The notes below the pieces were generated by a model. That model was not told the DNA's origin. It searched no databases and worked only from the letters and a program-made list of their open reading frames with translations. From assembly GCA_027080775.1 (NCBI GenBank), contig JALWPV010000069.1:1-46595 (forward strand): a DNA stretch of 46,595 nucleotides, in the 5' to 3' direction. Shown in pieces: positions 4,770-40,811 of this stretch (positions are counted from its first letter, which is position 1; each line of letters begins with the position of its first letter). Source of the stretch: Acidilobaceae archaeon. GTDB lineage: Archaea > Thermoproteota > Thermoprotei_A > Sulfolobales > Acidilobaceae. The position numbers were made by a program, and so were the translations under genes.

Positions 4770-5597
4770 CTAGGGGGCCCTGCCGCAGGCCCTGCGTAGC
4801 TCCTCCTCGACCCTACCCGCTATGAGCCTGAGCTCGGCGCTCTCCTCGGCTGGCCTGGGGTAGGCGTTCATGTCCACCTTTAGGGGGGTTATGGAGACGC
4901 ATCCCTCCGCCATGACTGCGTAAACGTCGGAGCCCGGCTCGGGGGGTAGGGGGATGGGCTGGAGCCAGTAGTATGGCCTCCCGCGGGTGTCGAGGCGCCT
5001 CTCGAAGTCGGGTCTCCACCTCCTCCTGGCGGCCCGGGCGAGCCTCACGCAGCCCCTGATGTTCTCGGGTGCGGGGAAGTTTACGGTGAGGAGGTCCACC
5101 CCCCGGGGGAGCCCCCTCTCGAGGACCTGGCGCGAGAGCTCCCCGGCCACGGCCCTGACGACCCTGGCTAGCTTCTCGTCCTCGAACTCCTCCCAGAGGT
5201 GGACGTCCGCCGAGAAGGCTATGGCCGGTATGCCCATGAGGGCCGCCTCGACCGCAACCGCTATCGTGCCGCTGTAGAGTATGTGCTGCATGCTGAGGTT
5301 CTCGCCGACGTTGACCCCCGAAACCACCAGGTCGGGGTGGTAGCTGTGGGCCGCTATGGCTAGGTGGAGGGCGTCCACGGGGCTGCCGTCGACGACGTAG
5401 ACATCGTAGCCCCCGTGCTTCACGAGGGTCATCCTGAGCGGCTTGTTGAAGGAGACCGTGTGGCCAACCGCGCTCCTAGGCCAGAGGGTCGAGTATATCC
5501 TAGCCTCGCCCAGGTGCTTGACGGACTCGTAGAGGAGGTAGAGGCCCTTCGAGAGGTAGCTATCATCATTCCCCACTAGGATCCTGTAGGCTGCCAA
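4770..5597 (-). CDS. surE: SurE family 5'/3'-nucleotidase
   Basis: 275 aa. SurE is a metal-dependent survival-protein phosphatase acting on nucleoside monophosphates and polyphosphates. Motifs visible: the N-terminal acidic pair in ILVGNDDS (Asp11-Asp12), Ser/Asn ligands in VVSGVNVGENLS, and YSGTIAVAVEAALMGIPAIAFS. Family members usually read NDDG and GINxGxNLG, so this is a mildly divergent archaeal member. Length is normal (250-275 aa). It starts with TTG at 5597; an earlier start would enter the short divergent promoter region shared with the permease gene. Confidence 0.9.
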   Translation of the reverse strand: MAAYRILVGNDDSYLSKGLYLLYESVKHLGEARIYSTLWPRSAVGHTVSFNKPLRMTLVKHGGYDVYVVDGSPVDALHLAIAAHSYHPDLVVSGVNVGENLSMQHILYSGTIAVAVEAALMGIPAIAFSADVHLWEEFEDEKLARVVRAVAGELSRQVLERGLPRGVDLLTVNFPAPENIRGCVRLARAARRRWRPDFERRLDTRGRPYYWLQPIPLPPEPGSDVYAVMAEGCVSITPLKVDMNAYPRPAEESAELRLIAGRVEEELRRACGRAP

Positions 5598-5691: not shown

Positions 5692-7365
5692 GTGCTGGGG
5701 CGCCCGGCTTTGGCGGCGAGGCCGCGCGGCGAGGGCATAGGGTTCAGGGAGGCCTTCAGCATAGGCGTCGGGGGCATGATTGGGGGCGGCATATTCGCCG
5801 TCCTAGGCCTCAGCCTCGAGCTCGCGGGTAGCGCCGCGCCCGTGGCCTTCGCTCTGGCAGGCCTCGTGGCGGGGCTCACGGCCTACTCCTACTCCAAGCT
5901 GACGCTGCGCTACCCAAGCAGGGGCGGCACGGTCGAGTTCCTGGTGAGGGCCTACGGCCCTGGCCTCCTCTCGGGGGGCCTGAATGTCCTCCTAGTCCTG
6001 AGCTACACGGTGATGATAGCGCTGTACGCCTACGCCTTCGGGAGCTATGGCGCGAGCAGCTTCGGCGGGGGCCACCTGGCTGCTAGGATCCTAGGCGTCG
6101 CCGTCATACTGGCCTTCACCGGCGTCAACGCCCTCGGGGCCCTGGTCTCGGGGAGGGTGGAGGATGGCCTAGTATTCTTCAAGCTCAGCATCCTAGTCCT
6201 CGTGGTGGCCGTCTCGCTCCCCCTGATAGAGTGGCAGAGGCTCTCCCCCGCAGCGTGGCCCCCGCCATCGAGGATAGTGGCTGGGGGCATGATCATATTC
6301 CTCGCCTACGAGGGCTTCGAGCTCATAGCAAACAGCGCCGCCGACGCCGTGAGGGTGGAGGACGTGGCCAGGGCGTTCCTCGCCTCCGTCGCCGTGGTGG
6401 TGGCCGTCTACATCTCGGTAGCCCTGGTGGCGGCTGGCGCACTCACCCCGGCCGAGGTCATCAAGGCCAGGGACTACGCCCTCGCAGCCCTCGCCGGCAG
6501 GAGCCTGGGGAGGCCCGGGTTCCTCCTGGTGGTGGCGGCCGCCCTGGCCTCGACGGCCTCTGCTATAAACGCCACGCTCTACGGCACGGCCGGCATAAGC
6601 TACGTGGTCGCCCGCTACGGCCAGCTCCCACGGGAGATAGGCAGGACCATATGGGGCAAGGCCCCCGAGGGCCTCCTACTCATAGCCCTAATCTCCTCCG
6701 CCCTCACCCTAGGCGCGGGCCTAGAGGAGATCTCGCTCGCGGGGAGCGCCGGGTTCCTGCTGATATTCACCGCCGTGAACCTCGCAGCCTACAAGCTCCG
6801 CAGGCAGGCCAAGGCCAGCGGGCCCCTCGCACTCGCCGGGGCGCTGGCGGCCCTCGCTAGCCTAGCCGTGCTGCTGTACCACTCCTACGAGTCCACGCCG
6901 GGCCAGGTGGCACTCTTCGCCGCCCTGGCCGCGTCAGCATTCGCCGGGGAGGCCCTCTACAGGCTCGCTACCGGCCGCAGGATCGCCGAGTACGTCGACC
7001 CCCTCCTCGAGGAGAGGGAGAGACTGAAGAGGGCCTGGGAGTCCTGGGTGCCAAGCGTGCTAGGGGCGCTGAGGCGCCTCCTAGGCGAGTTCGAGGCCTA
7101 CCTCGTAGGCGGGGTGGCCCGGGGGGAGCACGAGTCATCCCACGATGTCGACCTTCTAGTGGTAACCCCCAAGGCCCCTGCGGGGCGCCTGGAGAGGGAG
7201 GCCAGGGCCCTCGAGGAGGAGGTGAGGAGGCTCGCAGGCCTACCTAGGCATCATCCGCTGCACCTACACCTAGCCACGCCCAGCCAGAGGGATGAGTGGC
7301 TACGCAGGAGCCGGGCCCACAAGCCCCTACACGCCAAGGCCGAGGAGGGGAGCCGAAACGGTTAA
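5692..7365 (+). CDS. APC-family amino-acid permease fused to a C-terminal MNT-type nucleotidyltransferase domain
   Basis: 557 aa in one uninterrupted frame. Residues about 15-430 form a 12-helix APC-superfamily transporter, starting with the typical FSIGVGGMIGGGIFAVLG motif of TM1 and with YEGFELIANSAAD in TM6. After a charged linker (VDPLLEERERLKRAW), residues about 465-557 carry YLVGGVARGEHESSHDVDLL, the G-G-x8-12-DxD core of minimal (MNT) nucleotidyltransferases. The permease should sit in the cytoplasmic membrane with the transferase domain in the cytosol; substrate and target are unknown. The domain could modify or gate the transporter or act on a separate partner. Start is GTG 5692 or TTG 5710. 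I know of no characterised protein with this architecture. Confidence 0.85.
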   Translation: MLGRPALAARPRGEGIGFREAFSIGVGGMIGGGIFAVLGLSLELAGSAAPVAFALAGLVAGLTAYSYSKLTLRYPSRGGTVEFLVRAYGPGLLSGGLNVLLVLSYTVMIALYAYAFGSYGASSFGGGHLAARILGVAVILAFTGVNALGALVSGRVEDGLVFFKLSILVLVVAVSLPLIEWQRLSPAAWPPPSRIVAGGMIIFLAYEGFELIANSAADAVRVEDVARAFLASVAVVVAVYISVALVAAGALTPAEVIKARDYALAALAGRSLGRPGFLLVVAAALASTASAINATLYGTAGISYVVARYGQLPREIGRTIWGKAPEGLLLIALISSALTLGAGLEEISLAGSAGFLLIFTAVNLAAYKLRRQAKASGPLALAGALAALASLAVLLYHSYESTPGQVALFAALAASAFAGEALYRLATGRRIAEYVDPLLEERERLKRAWESWVPSVLGALRRLLGEFEAYLVGGVARGEHESSHDVDLLVVTPKAPAGRLEREARALEEEVRRLAGLPRHHPLHLHLATPSQRDEWLRRSRAHKPLHAKAEEGSRNG

Positions 7366-9701: not shown

Positions 9702-10040
9702 ATGCCGGCGAGCCCCATCGAGAAGCTGGCAGCGGCCGTCAACTGGCTCGAGGAGGAGCTGGCGAGCCTGAGGGAGCTTGCAAGCGATAAGGCCGGGGAT
9801 ATAATGAGGGCCGCCGACCTGCTCATGAGGGAGCTCGAGAATGACGCCGAGGTCCTAGTGGAGTCGATAATCAGGGAGCTCAACGAGCTTGCGGAGAGGG
9901 AGGTCGTCTCGATAGACGCCTGGGCCGACAGTGAGAAGGCCAGGCTGACGGAGGAGATCAGGGCCTCGGCCGAGGCTAACATGGAGAGGGCGGTGGATGA
10001 GGTGTTCAAGGTCATAGTTGAGAGGCTGGGGGGAGGCTAG
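9702..10040 (+). CDS. A-type ATP synthase peripheral-stalk subunit (H/E-like)
   Basis: 112 aa, starting at ATG after a perfect GGTGGAGGT ribosome site. The protein is an almost continuous charged helix (heptad-like pattern over residues 8-100) ending in AVDEVFKVIVERLGGG, like archaeal ATPase peripheral-stalk subunits. Its length is close to subunit H; it is short for a full subunit E. The stop codon abuts the GTG of the next gene, a subunit C homologue, which supports the assignment. It would be part of the stator that links the catalytic head to the membrane ring. Exact subunit identity is uncertain. Confidence 0.65.
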   Translation: MPASPIEKLAAAVNWLEEELASLRELASDKAGDIMRAADLLMRELENDAEVLVESIIRELNELAEREVVSIDAWADSEKARLTEEIRASAEANMERAVDEVFKVIVERLGGG

Positions 10041-11084
10041 GTGCCGGGTAGCACCGCCTACGCCCAGCTGGCGCCCGCCGCCAGGGTGGCCGTGACCAGG
10101 GTTCCATCCATAGAGAGGATAAGGGACGCCATGACAGCCCCCGACTTCAAGGAGGCCCTCGCAGCCCTGAGGGACGCCGTGCCCGGCCTCTCCGAGGCCA
10201 GGAGCCCCGAGGACGTTGGGAGGGCCCTATACTCCTGGCTCGGGGGGCTGGCTTGGCACCTCGCCAGGCTAGCCCCCAGGGGGGCGTCCATGGCGCTCCT
10301 CGCATTTGCGCTCGACGACATAGCGCTCGACATGCTCGCCGCCATGGAGGCTGCGGAGAGGGGCTCGAGGCCGGGTAGCATGCCTACTAGCGTGATAGAG
10401 TGGGGGCCCACCGCCGCCCTCGCCAGGGACCCGGAGATGATGTCGAGCCCCGAGAGGATCCTGGAGGCCTCATCCAAGTACAAGCCCCTCAGGAGGGCGC
10501 TCGAGTGGGCGCTCAACGCCGCCAGGCAGACGAGGGAGCCCAGGGTCTACACGCTAGCCCACCCGGCCGTCTCCTATGCTATATACACCTCGAGCCTCGA
10601 GGCCGTGGACGACTACAGCAGGGACTGGATCCTCCGCATAGTATGCCCCATGCTTCGCCACCGCGCCGCCAGGGCAGCCTCCCAGGCCGTGCTGCAGGGC
10701 TTCGAGCCCAGGGTGGCGGCGGCCGCCATCCCGGCCTGGTGGGACAGGCACTGCCACATACCCTGGAGGGCCCTGAGGGAGCTGGCCGAGAGGGAGGTAG
10801 AGGAGGAGCAGGTGCTCGCCGGGCTCAGGCAGCTCCTACCCGACATAGGGCTCGAGGGCCGCAGCCTCGCGGAGGCCCTGGAGGCGTCCCACAGGGCCAC
10901 GAGGGCTAGGGTGAGGCTCGCCGCCGTGCAGGCCCTCGAGTCCTACCCGCTACACCTAGGCCTCGCCGCGGCGGCCCTCGCGCTCGCGAGGCTCGCGGCC
11001 GAGAGCGTTAGGGGCGTGCTCCAGGCCGCGGCCCTCAGGCTCAGGCCCGACGAGTACGGGGAGCCCCTGGGGGTCGAGGCCTAG
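10041..11084 (+). CDS. atpC: A-type ATP synthase subunit C (central-stalk socket)
   Basis: 347 aa, all-helical and starting with GTG directly at the preceding stop codon. The end (HLGLAAAALALARLAAESVRG) resembles the terminal helix of subunit C/d proteins, where YLxxKExEVRNLR-like sequences are usual. Subunit C caps the membrane rotor and docks the central stalk. The protein is much more Ala/Arg-rich than bacterial or methanogen homologues, so the assignment rests on length, helicity, the C-terminal pattern and linkage to the stalk gene. The other ATPase genes are not in this window. Confidence 0.6.
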   Translation: MPGSTAYAQLAPAARVAVTRVPSIERIRDAMTAPDFKEALAALRDAVPGLSEARSPEDVGRALYSWLGGLAWHLARLAPRGASMALLAFALDDIALDMLAAMEAAERGSRPGSMPTSVIEWGPTAALARDPEMMSSPERILEASSKYKPLRRALEWALNAARQTREPRVYTLAHPAVSYAIYTSSLEAVDDYSRDWILRIVCPMLRHRAARAASQAVLQGFEPRVAAAAIPAWWDRHCHIPWRALRELAEREVEEEQVLAGLRQLLPDIGLEGRSLAEALEASHRATRARVRLAAVQALESYPLHLGLAAAALALARLAAESVRGVLQAAALRLRPDEYGEPLGVEA

Positions 11085-34882: not shown

Positions 34883-35316
34883 GTGTCCAGTGGCGAGTTC
34901 GCCGCTAAGCTGTGGAGGAGGGCGCTAGCGATGCTAGAGGGCGCGCGGTGGCGGCTGGGCAGGGGGAGTACGACCTTGCATGCTTTGAGGCCGAGCAGGC
35001 GGCGGCGCAGCTCGCCTTGAAGCCGCTCCTCTACGAGCTACTCGGCTCGGCCCCTCGGATACACGACTTAGGCGAGTTCCTCGGGCTCCTCCACCGTGCG
35101 CTGGAGGAGGGCGGGCTAGAAGGGCCCGCTGGGCTCCTAGTGGACCTGGTCCGGGGTCGCCGCAGGGACACCTGGCTCCTAAGCGACTCCTACTATAGGG
35201 GCCGGTATGGCTGCGTAGACTACACCGCCGACGAGGCTGATAGGTGCATAGGAGCAGCCAGGGAGGTACTGAGGCTCGTGGAGGAGGTGCGGAGAGCCCT
35301 TGAGGAGGAGGCCTAG
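34883..35316 (+). pseudogene. HEPN-domain protein with an apparent frameshift in a G run
   Basis: From GTG 34883 the frame gives FAAKLWRRALAMLEGARWRL, a typical HEPN first helix. At the five-G run 34962-34966 the family sequence jumps to another frame: GEYDLACFEAEQAAAQLALK, PRIHDLGEFLGLL and SDSYYRGRYG, continuing to 35316. One extra G would join the two halves. Read as annotated-style from GTG 34912, the protein would lack helix 1 and begin with an unconserved leader. HEPN proteins of this kind pair with MNT nucleotidyltransferases as toxin-antitoxin modules, and an MNT gene overlaps the 3' end. It could be a pseudogene, a phase-variable gene or a sequencing error. Confidence 0.72.
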
Positions 35317-35728
35317 CCTCGAGGGGCTGCTCGTAGAGGCCTATAGGAGGCTCCTGCACTGGAGGCGCTACGTCGGCGCCGTCGCTAGAGCGGCTGCAGA
35401 CCTCCTGGGCCCCGACACGAGGGTCTACGTGATCGGCGGGGCCGCTGAGGGGAGGCTGACCGTGCTTAGCGACATAGACATCGTGATAGTCTCCAGAAGC
35501 GTGCCGAGGGACGAGGCGGGGAAGCAGCGCCTAAGGCTCGAGGTGAGGGATAGAGCCGTGGCCCGCTACGGCCTCCCCTGGGACTACCCCGTAGACATAC
35601 ACCTCTACAACGAGGAAGAATTCAGGGTGGCAAGGGGGCGCTACCGTAGGATGATAAAGATCCAGATTGAGTGGGACCGAGAGCCCGGCGGCGCGGGGGC
35701 CCAAGGATTACTCCATGGCGGGGGGTGA
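35300..35728 (+). CDS. MNT-type nucleotidyltransferase (HEPN partner), copy 1
   Basis: 142 aa from TTG, overlapping the HEPN gene by 17 bp. Core motif VYVIGGAAEGRLTVLSDIDI supplies the glycine loop and the DxD metal pair; VDIHLYNEEEF holds the third acidic residue region. Such proteins neutralise HEPN ribonucleases, in studied systems by adenylylating them. The glycine loop reads GG rather than the more common GS. The C-terminus has a Gly-rich tail. Confidence 0.82.
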   Translation: MRRRPSLEGLLVEAYRRLLHWRRYVGAVARAAADLLGPDTRVYVIGGAAEGRLTVLSDIDIVIVSRSVPRDEAGKQRLRLEVRDRAVARYGLPWDYPVDIHLYNEEEFRVARGRYRRMIKIQIEWDREPGGAGAQGLLHGGG

Positions 35729-39451: not shown

Positions 39452-39871
39452 CTAGCCCAGCGCTACCCCCCCATAGGGGGTCCTCCTGGGTCTGCGGGCG
39501 TTGTAGAGCCTCCTCGCCCGCTCCCAGAAGCCGTCGTCCACTATAACCACGCCGTACTCGAGCGCATCTAACACGTCGAGGCGGGGTCTCCCCTCGAGGG
39601 CGTCGAGCACCTCTTTGGGCGTGTAGCACCAGGGCTCTACGGGTAGGCCTCCCCTATACCTCTCGAGTACCAGGTACTCCCTCTCATAGAAGGGCCTGCC
39701 CTCGAACCCCTCTGCGACTACTAGCACGTCGATGTCGCTATCCCTTAGACAGTCGCCGCGGGCCCTGCTACCGAAGACCACCAGCGAGTGGAGCCCCAGG
39801 TCCGAGATGCTGCGGGCCAGGCGCTCCAGCCCGCCTCTCAGGCCCTCGAGGCAATCGCCTCCCTCACCCAC
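39452..39871 (-). CDS. MNT-type nucleotidyltransferase (HEPN partner), copy 2
   Basis: 139 aa. Canonical core HSLVVFGSRARGDCLRDSDIDV with GS and DxD, followed by LPVEPWCYTPKEV, which holds the third acidic position. It overlaps the upstream HEPN gene by 34 bp, the usual coupled arrangement. The GSRARG loop is more typical than in the copy at 35300. Likely antitoxin that modifies the HEPN protein. Confidence 0.88.
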   Translation of the reverse strand: MGEGGDCLEGLRGGLERLARSISDLGLHSLVVFGSRARGDCLRDSDIDVLVVAEGFEGRPFYEREYLVLERYRGGLPVEPWCYTPKEVLDALEGRPRLDVLDALEYGVVIVDDGFWERARRLYNARRPRRTPYGGVALG

Positions 39872-40230
39872 GATACCACCCTTTCCGCGAGCAAGACCAG
39901 CTCCGAGGCTATTGCCTCGCTGTAGACCTCCATGGGCACACCGTTAGCGGCGTCCGGGTACCTAGCCACTCTATAGTGGGGGTTGAGCCTCCTAAGCGCC
40001 TCCAGGATCTCCTCGTCCCTTATACCTAGGATATCCGCTAGCCTAACCAGGTTATGGATGCGGGGAGGCAGCTCTCTTCGCAGTTCAACTATAGCCGCCT
40101 TGAGGGCCTTCTCGGCCGCTTGATGCGCGTGGAAAGCCGCGCCAGCATACCTACCAGCCCTCAATAGTATCCTGGCATCCTCTAAGTCATCTTCAGCGGC
40201 GCGCAGCCACTCCTCGGCCTCAGGCCTCAC
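39838..40230 (-). CDS. HEPN-domain protein (toxin partner of MNT), copy 2
   Basis: 130 aa from GTG 40230. The open frame runs much further upstream (to 40773), but that part is Pro/Arg-rich and antisense to another gene. Core: EEWLRAAEDDLEDARILLRA, FHAHQAAEKALKAAIVEL, PRIHNLVRLADILG and HYRVARYPDAANGVPM, a textbook HEPN helical bundle of the type paired with MNT proteins. HEPN toxins are usually ribonucleases, although this subgroup lacks a clear R-x4-6-H motif. Intact, unlike the HEPN at 34883. Confidence 0.88.
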   Translation of the reverse strand: MRPEAEEWLRAAEDDLEDARILLRAGRYAGAAFHAHQAAEKALKAAIVELRRELPPRIHNLVRLADILGIRDEEILEALRRLNPHYRVARYPDAANGVPMEVYSEAIASELVLLAERVVSWVREAIASRA

Positions 40231-40310
40231 TAGACACAGCCCCCACCATAACCCCGGGTGATAGGGGACCATAAACCCCTCAAGGCCCCCCTCCCGGGGG
40301 GATCCAGCCG

Positions 40311-40754
40311 CTAGCGGCTCGACACCACTACTATGACCCCGCCGCGCGCCCTGCGCGCCCGGGCCTCGAGCCTCCTCAGGAGGAGGTAGCCCGCCACCAC
40401 TACGGGCGAAGACGCTAGCAGGGAGGCCAGGTAGCCCGCTAGGCCCCGCCAGGGGGCCAGGTAGGAGTACACGAGCCCCGCGGCTGCGAGCCATGCTAGG
40501 TAGACTAGGAGCTGGGCCGTGTTGTAGAGCGCGAGGGGCCTGGGATGGGACTCGAACTGGTGCACCACATAGCTGGCAGCGACCAGGGCCAGGGCGGCGG
40601 CGCCCACCAGGTCCCCGGCTAGGCTGACCCCCTCGGCGCCTAGGAGTCCCGCAACCCATGGGTAGAGGGGGCTCCTCGGCGCGAGCGCCAGGAAGAGGGC
40701 TGCTAGGACCACGCCGAGCACGAGCATTACGGCGCCGAGGCGGCGGGCTTCCAC
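40311..40754 (-). CDS. Hypothetical membrane protein, four TM helices
   Basis: 147 aa. Four hydrophobic segments (about residues 7-26, 45-60, 80-100 and 105-125), the second part containing ASYVVHQFESHPRPLALYN. The C-terminus is basic (RRLEARARRARGG), likely cytoplasmic. No family recognised. It follows the MFS gene on the same strand by 57 bp, so may belong to the same transcript. Confidence 0.62.
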   Translation of the reverse strand: MEARRLGAVMLVLGVVLAALFLALAPRSPLYPWVAGLLGAEGVSLAGDLVGAAALALVAASYVVHQFESHPRPLALYNTAQLLVYLAWLAAAGLVYSYLAPWRGLAGYLASLLASSPVVVAGYLLLRRLEARARRARGGVIVVVSSR

Positions 40755-40811
40755 GGAGGCGCTGCACCCCCAAGGCCCGGGGGGCTGGGGTCGGCTATAA
40801 GCTGGGGCCCC

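What the first reader, a model, noticed from the sequence alone, without database searches (positions are those of the whole stretch)
5692..7365. Amino-acid permease fused to a minimal nucleotidyltransferase domain
One continuous frame joins a 12-helix APC transporter to an MNT-like domain with an intact glycine loop and DxD pair (residues about 465-490). MNT proteins normally act as small soluble antitoxins paired with HEPN toxins. Here the domain is tethered to the membrane. It could nucleotidylylate the transporter or a partner in response to substrate flux, giving a self-regulated or signalling transporter. Two other MNT genes (35300, 39452) show the fold is common in this genome.
Basis: partly seen in the sequence, partly recalled or inferred. 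Interest (0 to 1): 0.75.

Follow-up and report, generated by a model that had tools for sequence, protein, structure and literature searches.

The report
Amino-acid transporter with nucleotidyltransferase-fold tail
Heat-loving archaea carry an amino-acid transporter whose cytoplasmic tail is a domain borrowed from nucleotide-transferring enzymes; the domain kept its nucleotide-binding residues in archaea, decayed in related hot-vent bacteria and was then lost in some, which suggests it is a built-in nucleotide-sensing regulator of transport rather than a toxin antidote.

Summary
The fusion is real. One 557-aa frame (5692-7365) joins an ApcT-type proton-coupled amino-acid transporter (closest solved structure MJ0609/ApcT, TM-score 0.92; proton lysine K158 = K164 here) to a C-terminal nucleotidyltransferase-fold (NTP_transf_2) domain. 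It is not an assembly artefact: 47 of 229 genomes of the class hold the same joined frame, and it also occurs in Archaeoglobi and thermophilic bacteria. On a tree of the permease all fused forms form one clade. In all 53 archaeal rows G and DxD of the active site are invariant. The third metal ligand (D71 in MntA) is only D (24) or H (29), switching at least 8 times; the window has H524. In 19 bacterial rows the motif is destroyed while the domain stays; 11 Campylobacterota have lost the domain but keep the linker. There is no HEPN partner and no conserved neighbour. So the fusion is confirmed, but an active, self-nucleotidylylating enzyme is only partly supported: the window copy lacks the third carboxylate. 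Most likely the domain is a cytosolic NTP/Mg-binding regulatory (perhaps dimerising) module, working like the KimA tail, with catalysis optional and eroded in bacteria. I found no description in the papers searched. New variant of a known kind.

The parts
5692..7365 (+). fused gene: ApcT-like amino-acid permease + C-terminal nucleotidyltransferase-fold domain, 557 aa (true start may lie up to about 12 codons downstream)
5737..6972 (+). 12-helix LeuT-fold transporter part (residues about 16-427)
   Evidence: Pfam AA_permease_2/AA_permease; profile match to ApcT 304 bits; model matches 3GIA at TM 0.92
6181..6183 (+). K164 (TM5), aligns with the proton-coupling K158 of ApcT; invariant in A1
   Evidence: PMC12764776
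6973..7035 (+). conserved linker helix after TM12 (residues 428-448, YxDxxLxxRE; D436, L439, R442 nearly invariant), kept as a relic in domain-less Campylobacterota
7036..7332 (+). nucleotidyltransferase-fold domain (residues 449-547)
7108..7152 (+). GGx10DxD motif (G473, G474, D485, D487)
7261..7263 (+). H524, at the position of the third metal ligand (D71 of MntA); D or H in archaeal fusions, E or D in most standalone MNTs

Best explanation
A proton-coupled, ApcT-type amino-acid transporter carries a C-terminal cytosolic regulatory domain made from a minimal-nucleotidyltransferase fold. The domain was gained once in the clade of known fused forms. In archaea it most likely binds an NTP or related nucleotide with Mg2+ through GGx10DxD plus D/H524, and through the TM12-linker helix it adjusts transport, and perhaps dimerisation, to the cell's nucleotide or energy state. 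Catalysis (nucleotidylylation) is possible in forms with the third Asp but is not needed for the conserved role. In thermophilic bacteria the domain is a pseudoenzyme that can act only by shape or protein contact, and in Campylobacterota it was deleted. Shown: the fusion, its conservation and single clade, residue states, purifying selection, fold. Inferred: nucleotide binding, the regulatory effect, the cytosolic side (by homology to ApcT), the substrate.
For: Joined frame in 47 of 229 class genomes and in Archaeoglobi and thermophilic bacteria. One fused clade, SH-aLRT 99; fused vs unfused needs 3 changes, one of them from a mis-included distant row. G473, D485 and D487 are in 100% of 53 archaeal rows, R477 in 96% and H526 in 98%, where the mean column frequency is 51%. 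Third ligand is only D or H in the 53, against E/D in 21 of 24 standalone MNTs; in MntA D71 binds the second Mg2+ (PMC7641770). All 19 bacterial rows lost the motif but keep the domain, one change on the tree. dN/dS of the tail 0.01-0.18 in archaeal pairs. Unfused Campylobacterota retain the linker YxDxxLxxxE, absent from outgroup unfused forms. Transporter part = ApcT fold, TM 0.92, with the proton lysine. Tail model best matches archaeal putative nucleotidyltransferases 2RFF and 1YLQ, then NF90-NF45 pseudoenzymes and MNT antitoxins. Precedent: KimA, an APC-superfamily transporter with an adenylyltransferase-like nucleotide-binding tail that pairs the dimer (PMC6994465; 8B70 with c-di-AMP).
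Against: No direct evidence of nucleotide binding or of any effect on transport. The strict invariance of DxD in archaea is also what an active enzyme would show, and nearly half of the archaeal forms keep a complete D, D, D set. Foldseek scores of the tail are moderate (TM about 0.5-0.56, normalised by the query). The model gives no usable geometry between the domains.
Confidence: 0.55

Rival explanations
1. Active nucleotidyltransferase: the tail AMPylates or otherwise nucleotidylylates the permease's own loops or a partner in response to substrate.
For: Invariant G and DxD, with correct spacing, in 53 archaeal rows; third ligand D in 24 of them; MntA precedent of AMP transfer to a Tyr of HepT (PMC7641770).
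Against: Third ligand is His in 29 of 53 including the window, whereas in MntA that position is a Mg2+ ligand; motif wholly lost in the bacterial forms, which keep the domain; no conserved partner gene.
Confidence: 0.2
2. Purely structural or oligomerisation tail: the domain keeps the fold as a cytosolic dimerisation or folding module and never needs nucleotide.
For: Bacterial forms keep the domain with no active site; NF90-NF45 DZF domains are a known NTase-fold pseudoenzyme dimeriser (PMC11952958); linker more conserved than the active site in bacteria.
Against: Does not explain 100% conservation of G473, D485 and D487 in archaea against a 51% mean column, nor the D/H-only third position.
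Confidence: 0.17
3. Membrane-anchored MNT antitoxin that neutralises a HEPN toxin encoded elsewhere in the genome.
For: The domain belongs to the same Pfam family as MNT antitoxins; the genome has several MNT genes, two of them beside HEPN genes in this window.
Against: No neighbour family recurs around the fused loci, and none is HEPN in the window; the tail is not named by the NCBIfam MntA model; the domain persists without an active site in bacteria.
Confidence: 0.04
4. Artefact: chance frame or mis-assembly joining two genes.
For: The window's genome is a fragmented assembly (85 contigs).
Against: The same joint in dozens of independent genomes, including ones in one contig, with purifying selection on both parts.
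Confidence: 0.01

Closest known systems
ApcT (MJ0609), Methanocaldococcus jannaschii; PDB 3GIA/3GI9/3GI8
   Same: Transporter fold over the whole permease (32% identity, TM 0.92), TM5 lysine K158 = K164, glycine-rich TM1 region
   Different: ApcT ends after TM12; here a nucleotidyltransferase-fold domain of about 100 residues follows
AF0614 (1YLQ) and S. solfataricus 2RFF, standalone putative nucleotidyltransferases
   Same: Same fold by model and profile match; nearest solved relatives of the tail
   Different: Free-standing; standalone archaeal relatives have mostly E at the third ligand, the tail has D or H
MntA of HepT/MntA (type VII toxin-antitoxin)
   Same: Pfam NTP_transf_2, GSx10DxD spacing, Mg/ATP site by homology
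   Different: Tethered to a transporter, no HEPN partner, third Mg ligand replaced by His in the window
KimA (APC superfamily/KUP, B. subtilis)
   Same: LeuT-fold transporter whose TM12 leads into a cytosolic, adenylyltransferase-like nucleotide-binding tail that pairs the dimer
   Different: The tail is of the phosphopantetheine-adenylyltransferase type, a different fold; function here untested
NF90/NF45 DZF domains
   Same: Nucleotidyltransferase-fold pseudoenzymes that serve as interaction modules, as the bacterial tails seem to
   Different: Eukaryotic nuclear RNA-binding proteins; no transporter

Membership tests
APC superfamily, ApcT-like amino-acid transporters | LeuT-type transporter fold over the whole permease | tested here: met
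   AlphaFold2 model, mean pLDDT 88, TM 0.92 to 3GIA
APC superfamily, ApcT-like amino-acid transporters | Lysine in TM5 at the Na2 position (proton coupling) | tested here: met
   K164 aligns with ApcT K158, invariant in 28 sequences; role from PMC12764776 and PMC5803215
APC superfamily, ApcT-like amino-acid transporters | Transport of amino acids | not testable with these tools
   needs proteoliposomes
Pfam NTP_transf_2 / nucleotidyltransferase fold | Profile match above curated cut-off | tested here: met
   33-36 bits vs cut-off 21
Active MNT nucleotidyltransferase | G[S/G]x10DxD | tested here: met
   GGx10DxD in the window; G and both D in 53/53 archaeal rows; lost in 19/19 bacterial rows
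Active MNT nucleotidyltransferase | Third carboxylate (MntA D71) binding the second metal | tested here: not met
   H524 in the window; D in 24 and H in 29 of the archaeal rows
Active MNT nucleotidyltransferase | NMP transfer activity | not testable with these tools
   needs assay
HepT/MntA toxin-antitoxin | HEPN gene adjacent | tested here: not met
   no recurrent neighbour family in the genome-contig loci examined with flanks; HEPN genes lie only beside the other MNTs of the window
HepT/MntA toxin-antitoxin | NCBIfam MntA model match | tested here: not met
   no NF047752 match for the fused protein or its tail at E 0.1
KimA/KUP | Sequence membership | tested here: not met
   no KUP family among Pfam matches; weaker fold match than to ApcT

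The most novel reading that the evidence does not exclude
A transporter with a working, membrane-tethered nucleotidyltransferase that is switched by the transport cycle and modifies itself, a partner or a small molecule, using a D/H-toggling metal site; a direct link from amino-acid flux to nucleotidylyl signalling in hyperthermophilic archaea.
Probability: 0.17. Interest if true: 0.85.

Novelty: new variant of a known kind. Interest (0 to 1): 0.57.

Why it matters
It would be an APC transporter controlled by a domain taken from nucleotide-transfer enzymes, of a type different from the KimA or cation-chloride cotransporter tails. Its relatives form a natural series (active-site residues kept, third ligand D or H, pseudoenzyme, domain deleted with its linker left behind) that makes the question 'does the domain need nucleotide, catalysis or only its fold?' testable with existing sequences. 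It also shows that MNT domains are used outside toxin-antitoxin systems.

Tried and rejected
Chance or artefactual fusion: rejected. HEPN partner or conserved operon: none found (the most recurrent families were shadow frames of the gene itself and common families such as ABC ATPases). A first alignment mishandled minus-strand loci and was redone. Two Pfam/NCBIfam calls (4, 6) and one alignment (29) failed on frame coordinates and were repeated. The model's coordinates are not exposed, so whether the active site faces the permease loops could not be measured. Paper searches for a transporter-nucleotidyltransferase fusion found nothing; the Kuchta 2009 survey of the fold is not held. The idea that the unfused Campylobacterota permeases are the pre-fusion ancestor was rejected: they nest inside the fused clade and keep the linker.

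Full report
The observation. The frame 5692-7365 (+) encodes 557 residues without a stop. Pfam finds AA_permease_2 at residues 16-394 and NTP_transf_2 at 456-518, both above the curated cut-offs. The tail reads YLVGGVARGEHESSHDVDLLVV, that is GGx10DxD with G473, G474, D485 and D487, and then HHPLHLHL, where H524 stands at the place of the third metal ligand.

It is not an artefact. A search of 229 genomes of the class found the full joined frame in 47, from six families, plus a contig-end copy in a seventh. Two other genomes of the same genus have it at 74-75% identity. A scan of the GTDB genome contigs found it also in contigs named Acidilobaceae, Pyrodictiaceae, other Desulfurococcales, Archaeoglobaceae, Geoglobus and Hydrothermarchaeota, and in thermophilic bacteria: Thermodesulfobacteria, Aquificota, Desulfurobacteriaceae, WOR-3 and some vent Campylobacterota. 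Most of these are metagenome bins, so single names may be wrong.

The transporter part. A profile of 28 fused proteins (A1) finds MJ0609/ApcT as by far the closest solved protein (304 bits, residues 2-424 of the profile), and the AlphaFold2 model (mean pLDDT 88, pTM 0.89) matches 3GIA with TM 0.92 normalised by the target. K164 aligns with ApcT K158, the residue implicated in proton coupling (PMC12764776; PMC5803215). [quoted passage not shown] the substrate is unknown. The cytosolic side of the C-terminus is inferred from ApcT and KimA topology, not tested.

The tail. Modelled alone it has a nucleotidyltransferase-like arrangement and its best solved matches are putative archaeal nucleotidyltransferases 2RFF and 1YLQ, then NF90-NF45, HI0073 and MNT antitoxins, with moderate scores.

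Evolution. On an IQ-TREE tree of the permease part alone (quick search, SH-aLRT) all genuine fused forms lie in one clade of 83 rows (support 99). Inside it, 11 unfused Campylobacterota nest beside WOR-3 forms. Most of these 11 keep a short tail like LKRYLDKDLEEKE, the linker helix seen in fused forms (YVDPLLEERE in the window), whereas unfused outgroup members end at TGRxI... without it. That points to one gain and a later deletion. Two distant permeases that slipped into the set (L102_4811, L119_7194) are long branches and do not bear on this; L102_4811 was wrongly counted as fused, so the tally of 3 changes is an upper count.

Residue states. In the 53 archaeal rows G473, D485 and D487 are 100% conserved, R477 96% and H526 98%, against a mean top-residue frequency of 51%. 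In all 19 bacterial rows the motif is destroyed (for example LLDELARGERDLAHTLHLAVV), with one change on the tree, although the domain still aligns over its length and most score clearly with the archaeal tail profile. The third ligand is D in 24 and H in 29 of the archaeal rows and nothing else, with at least 8 changes on the tree. In 24 standalone archaeal MNTs the same column is E 17, D 4, others 3. In MntA the equivalent D71 binds the second Mg2+ together with D39 and D41 (PMC7641770). Repeated switching between two possible metal ligands, with no other residue tolerated, suggests that the site is under selection as a metal or phosphate site; loss of the carboxylate in more than half, including the window, makes ordinary two-metal catalysis doubtful there. 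Asp and His codons are one step apart, so mutational ease contributes. For close archaeal pairs dN/dS of the tail is 0.01-0.18 and of the permease 0.02-0.12; the one bacterial pair gives 0.22 for the pseudo-tail and 0.03 for the permease.

Context. No neighbouring gene family recurs around the fused gene in the flanked loci. In the window it is flanked by SurE (4770-5597) and an MgtC-like gene. The other two MNT genes of the window lie beside HEPN genes (35300 with 34912-35316; 39452 with 39838-40773) and look like ordinary HEPN-MNT loci; the fused gene does not.

Mechanism. Three readings fit parts of this: a nucleotide-binding regulatory tail, an active enzyme, and a purely structural tail. 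The archaeal invariance argues against purely structural; the D/H position, the bacterial pseudoenzymes and the absence of a partner argue against obligatory catalysis. I commit to an NTP/Mg-binding regulatory module that acts on transport through the TM12 linker, probably in a dimer, at 0.55. The closest working analogue is KimA, whose TM12 leads into an adenylyltransferase-like tail that pairs the dimer (PMC6994465) and for which a c-di-AMP-bound structure exists (8B70); that is a resemblance in working, not membership.

Novelty. In the library searched I found no paper on a nucleotidyltransferase domain fused to an amino-acid transporter; the HEPN/MNT survey PMC3710099 has no occurrence of 'permease' or 'transporter' in its main text. 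Absence from this library is not proof that it is undescribed. I rate it a new variant of a known kind: an APC transporter with a nucleotide-type regulatory tail of a new sort.

Noticed in passing
34912-35316 and 35300-35728 (+): Overlapping HEPN (PF05168, 64 bits) and MNT genes, HEPN first; a HEPN-MNT pair although the usual gene order is MNT first (PMC3710099).
   Followed up: partly
39452-39871 and 39838-40773 (-): MNT gene directly downstream of a 311-aa protein whose C-terminal third is a HEPN domain (103 bits); the N-terminal 185 residues match no Pfam family.
   Followed up: partly
whole genome G000: 14 NTP_transf_2 matches in a 1.78-Mb genome, some in open frames of 200-469 aa (e.g. 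C25:2531, 469 aa; C11:251055, 301 aa) that might be further fusions.
   Followed up: no
L019 (G022:C9:4042-5582): A copy of the fused gene broken into several frames with stops; pseudogene or poor assembly.
   Followed up: no
10041-11084 (+): 347-aa protein with no Pfam match, directly after a 112-aa frame (9702-10040) that reads like a V/A-ATPase-type coiled coil.
   Followed up: no
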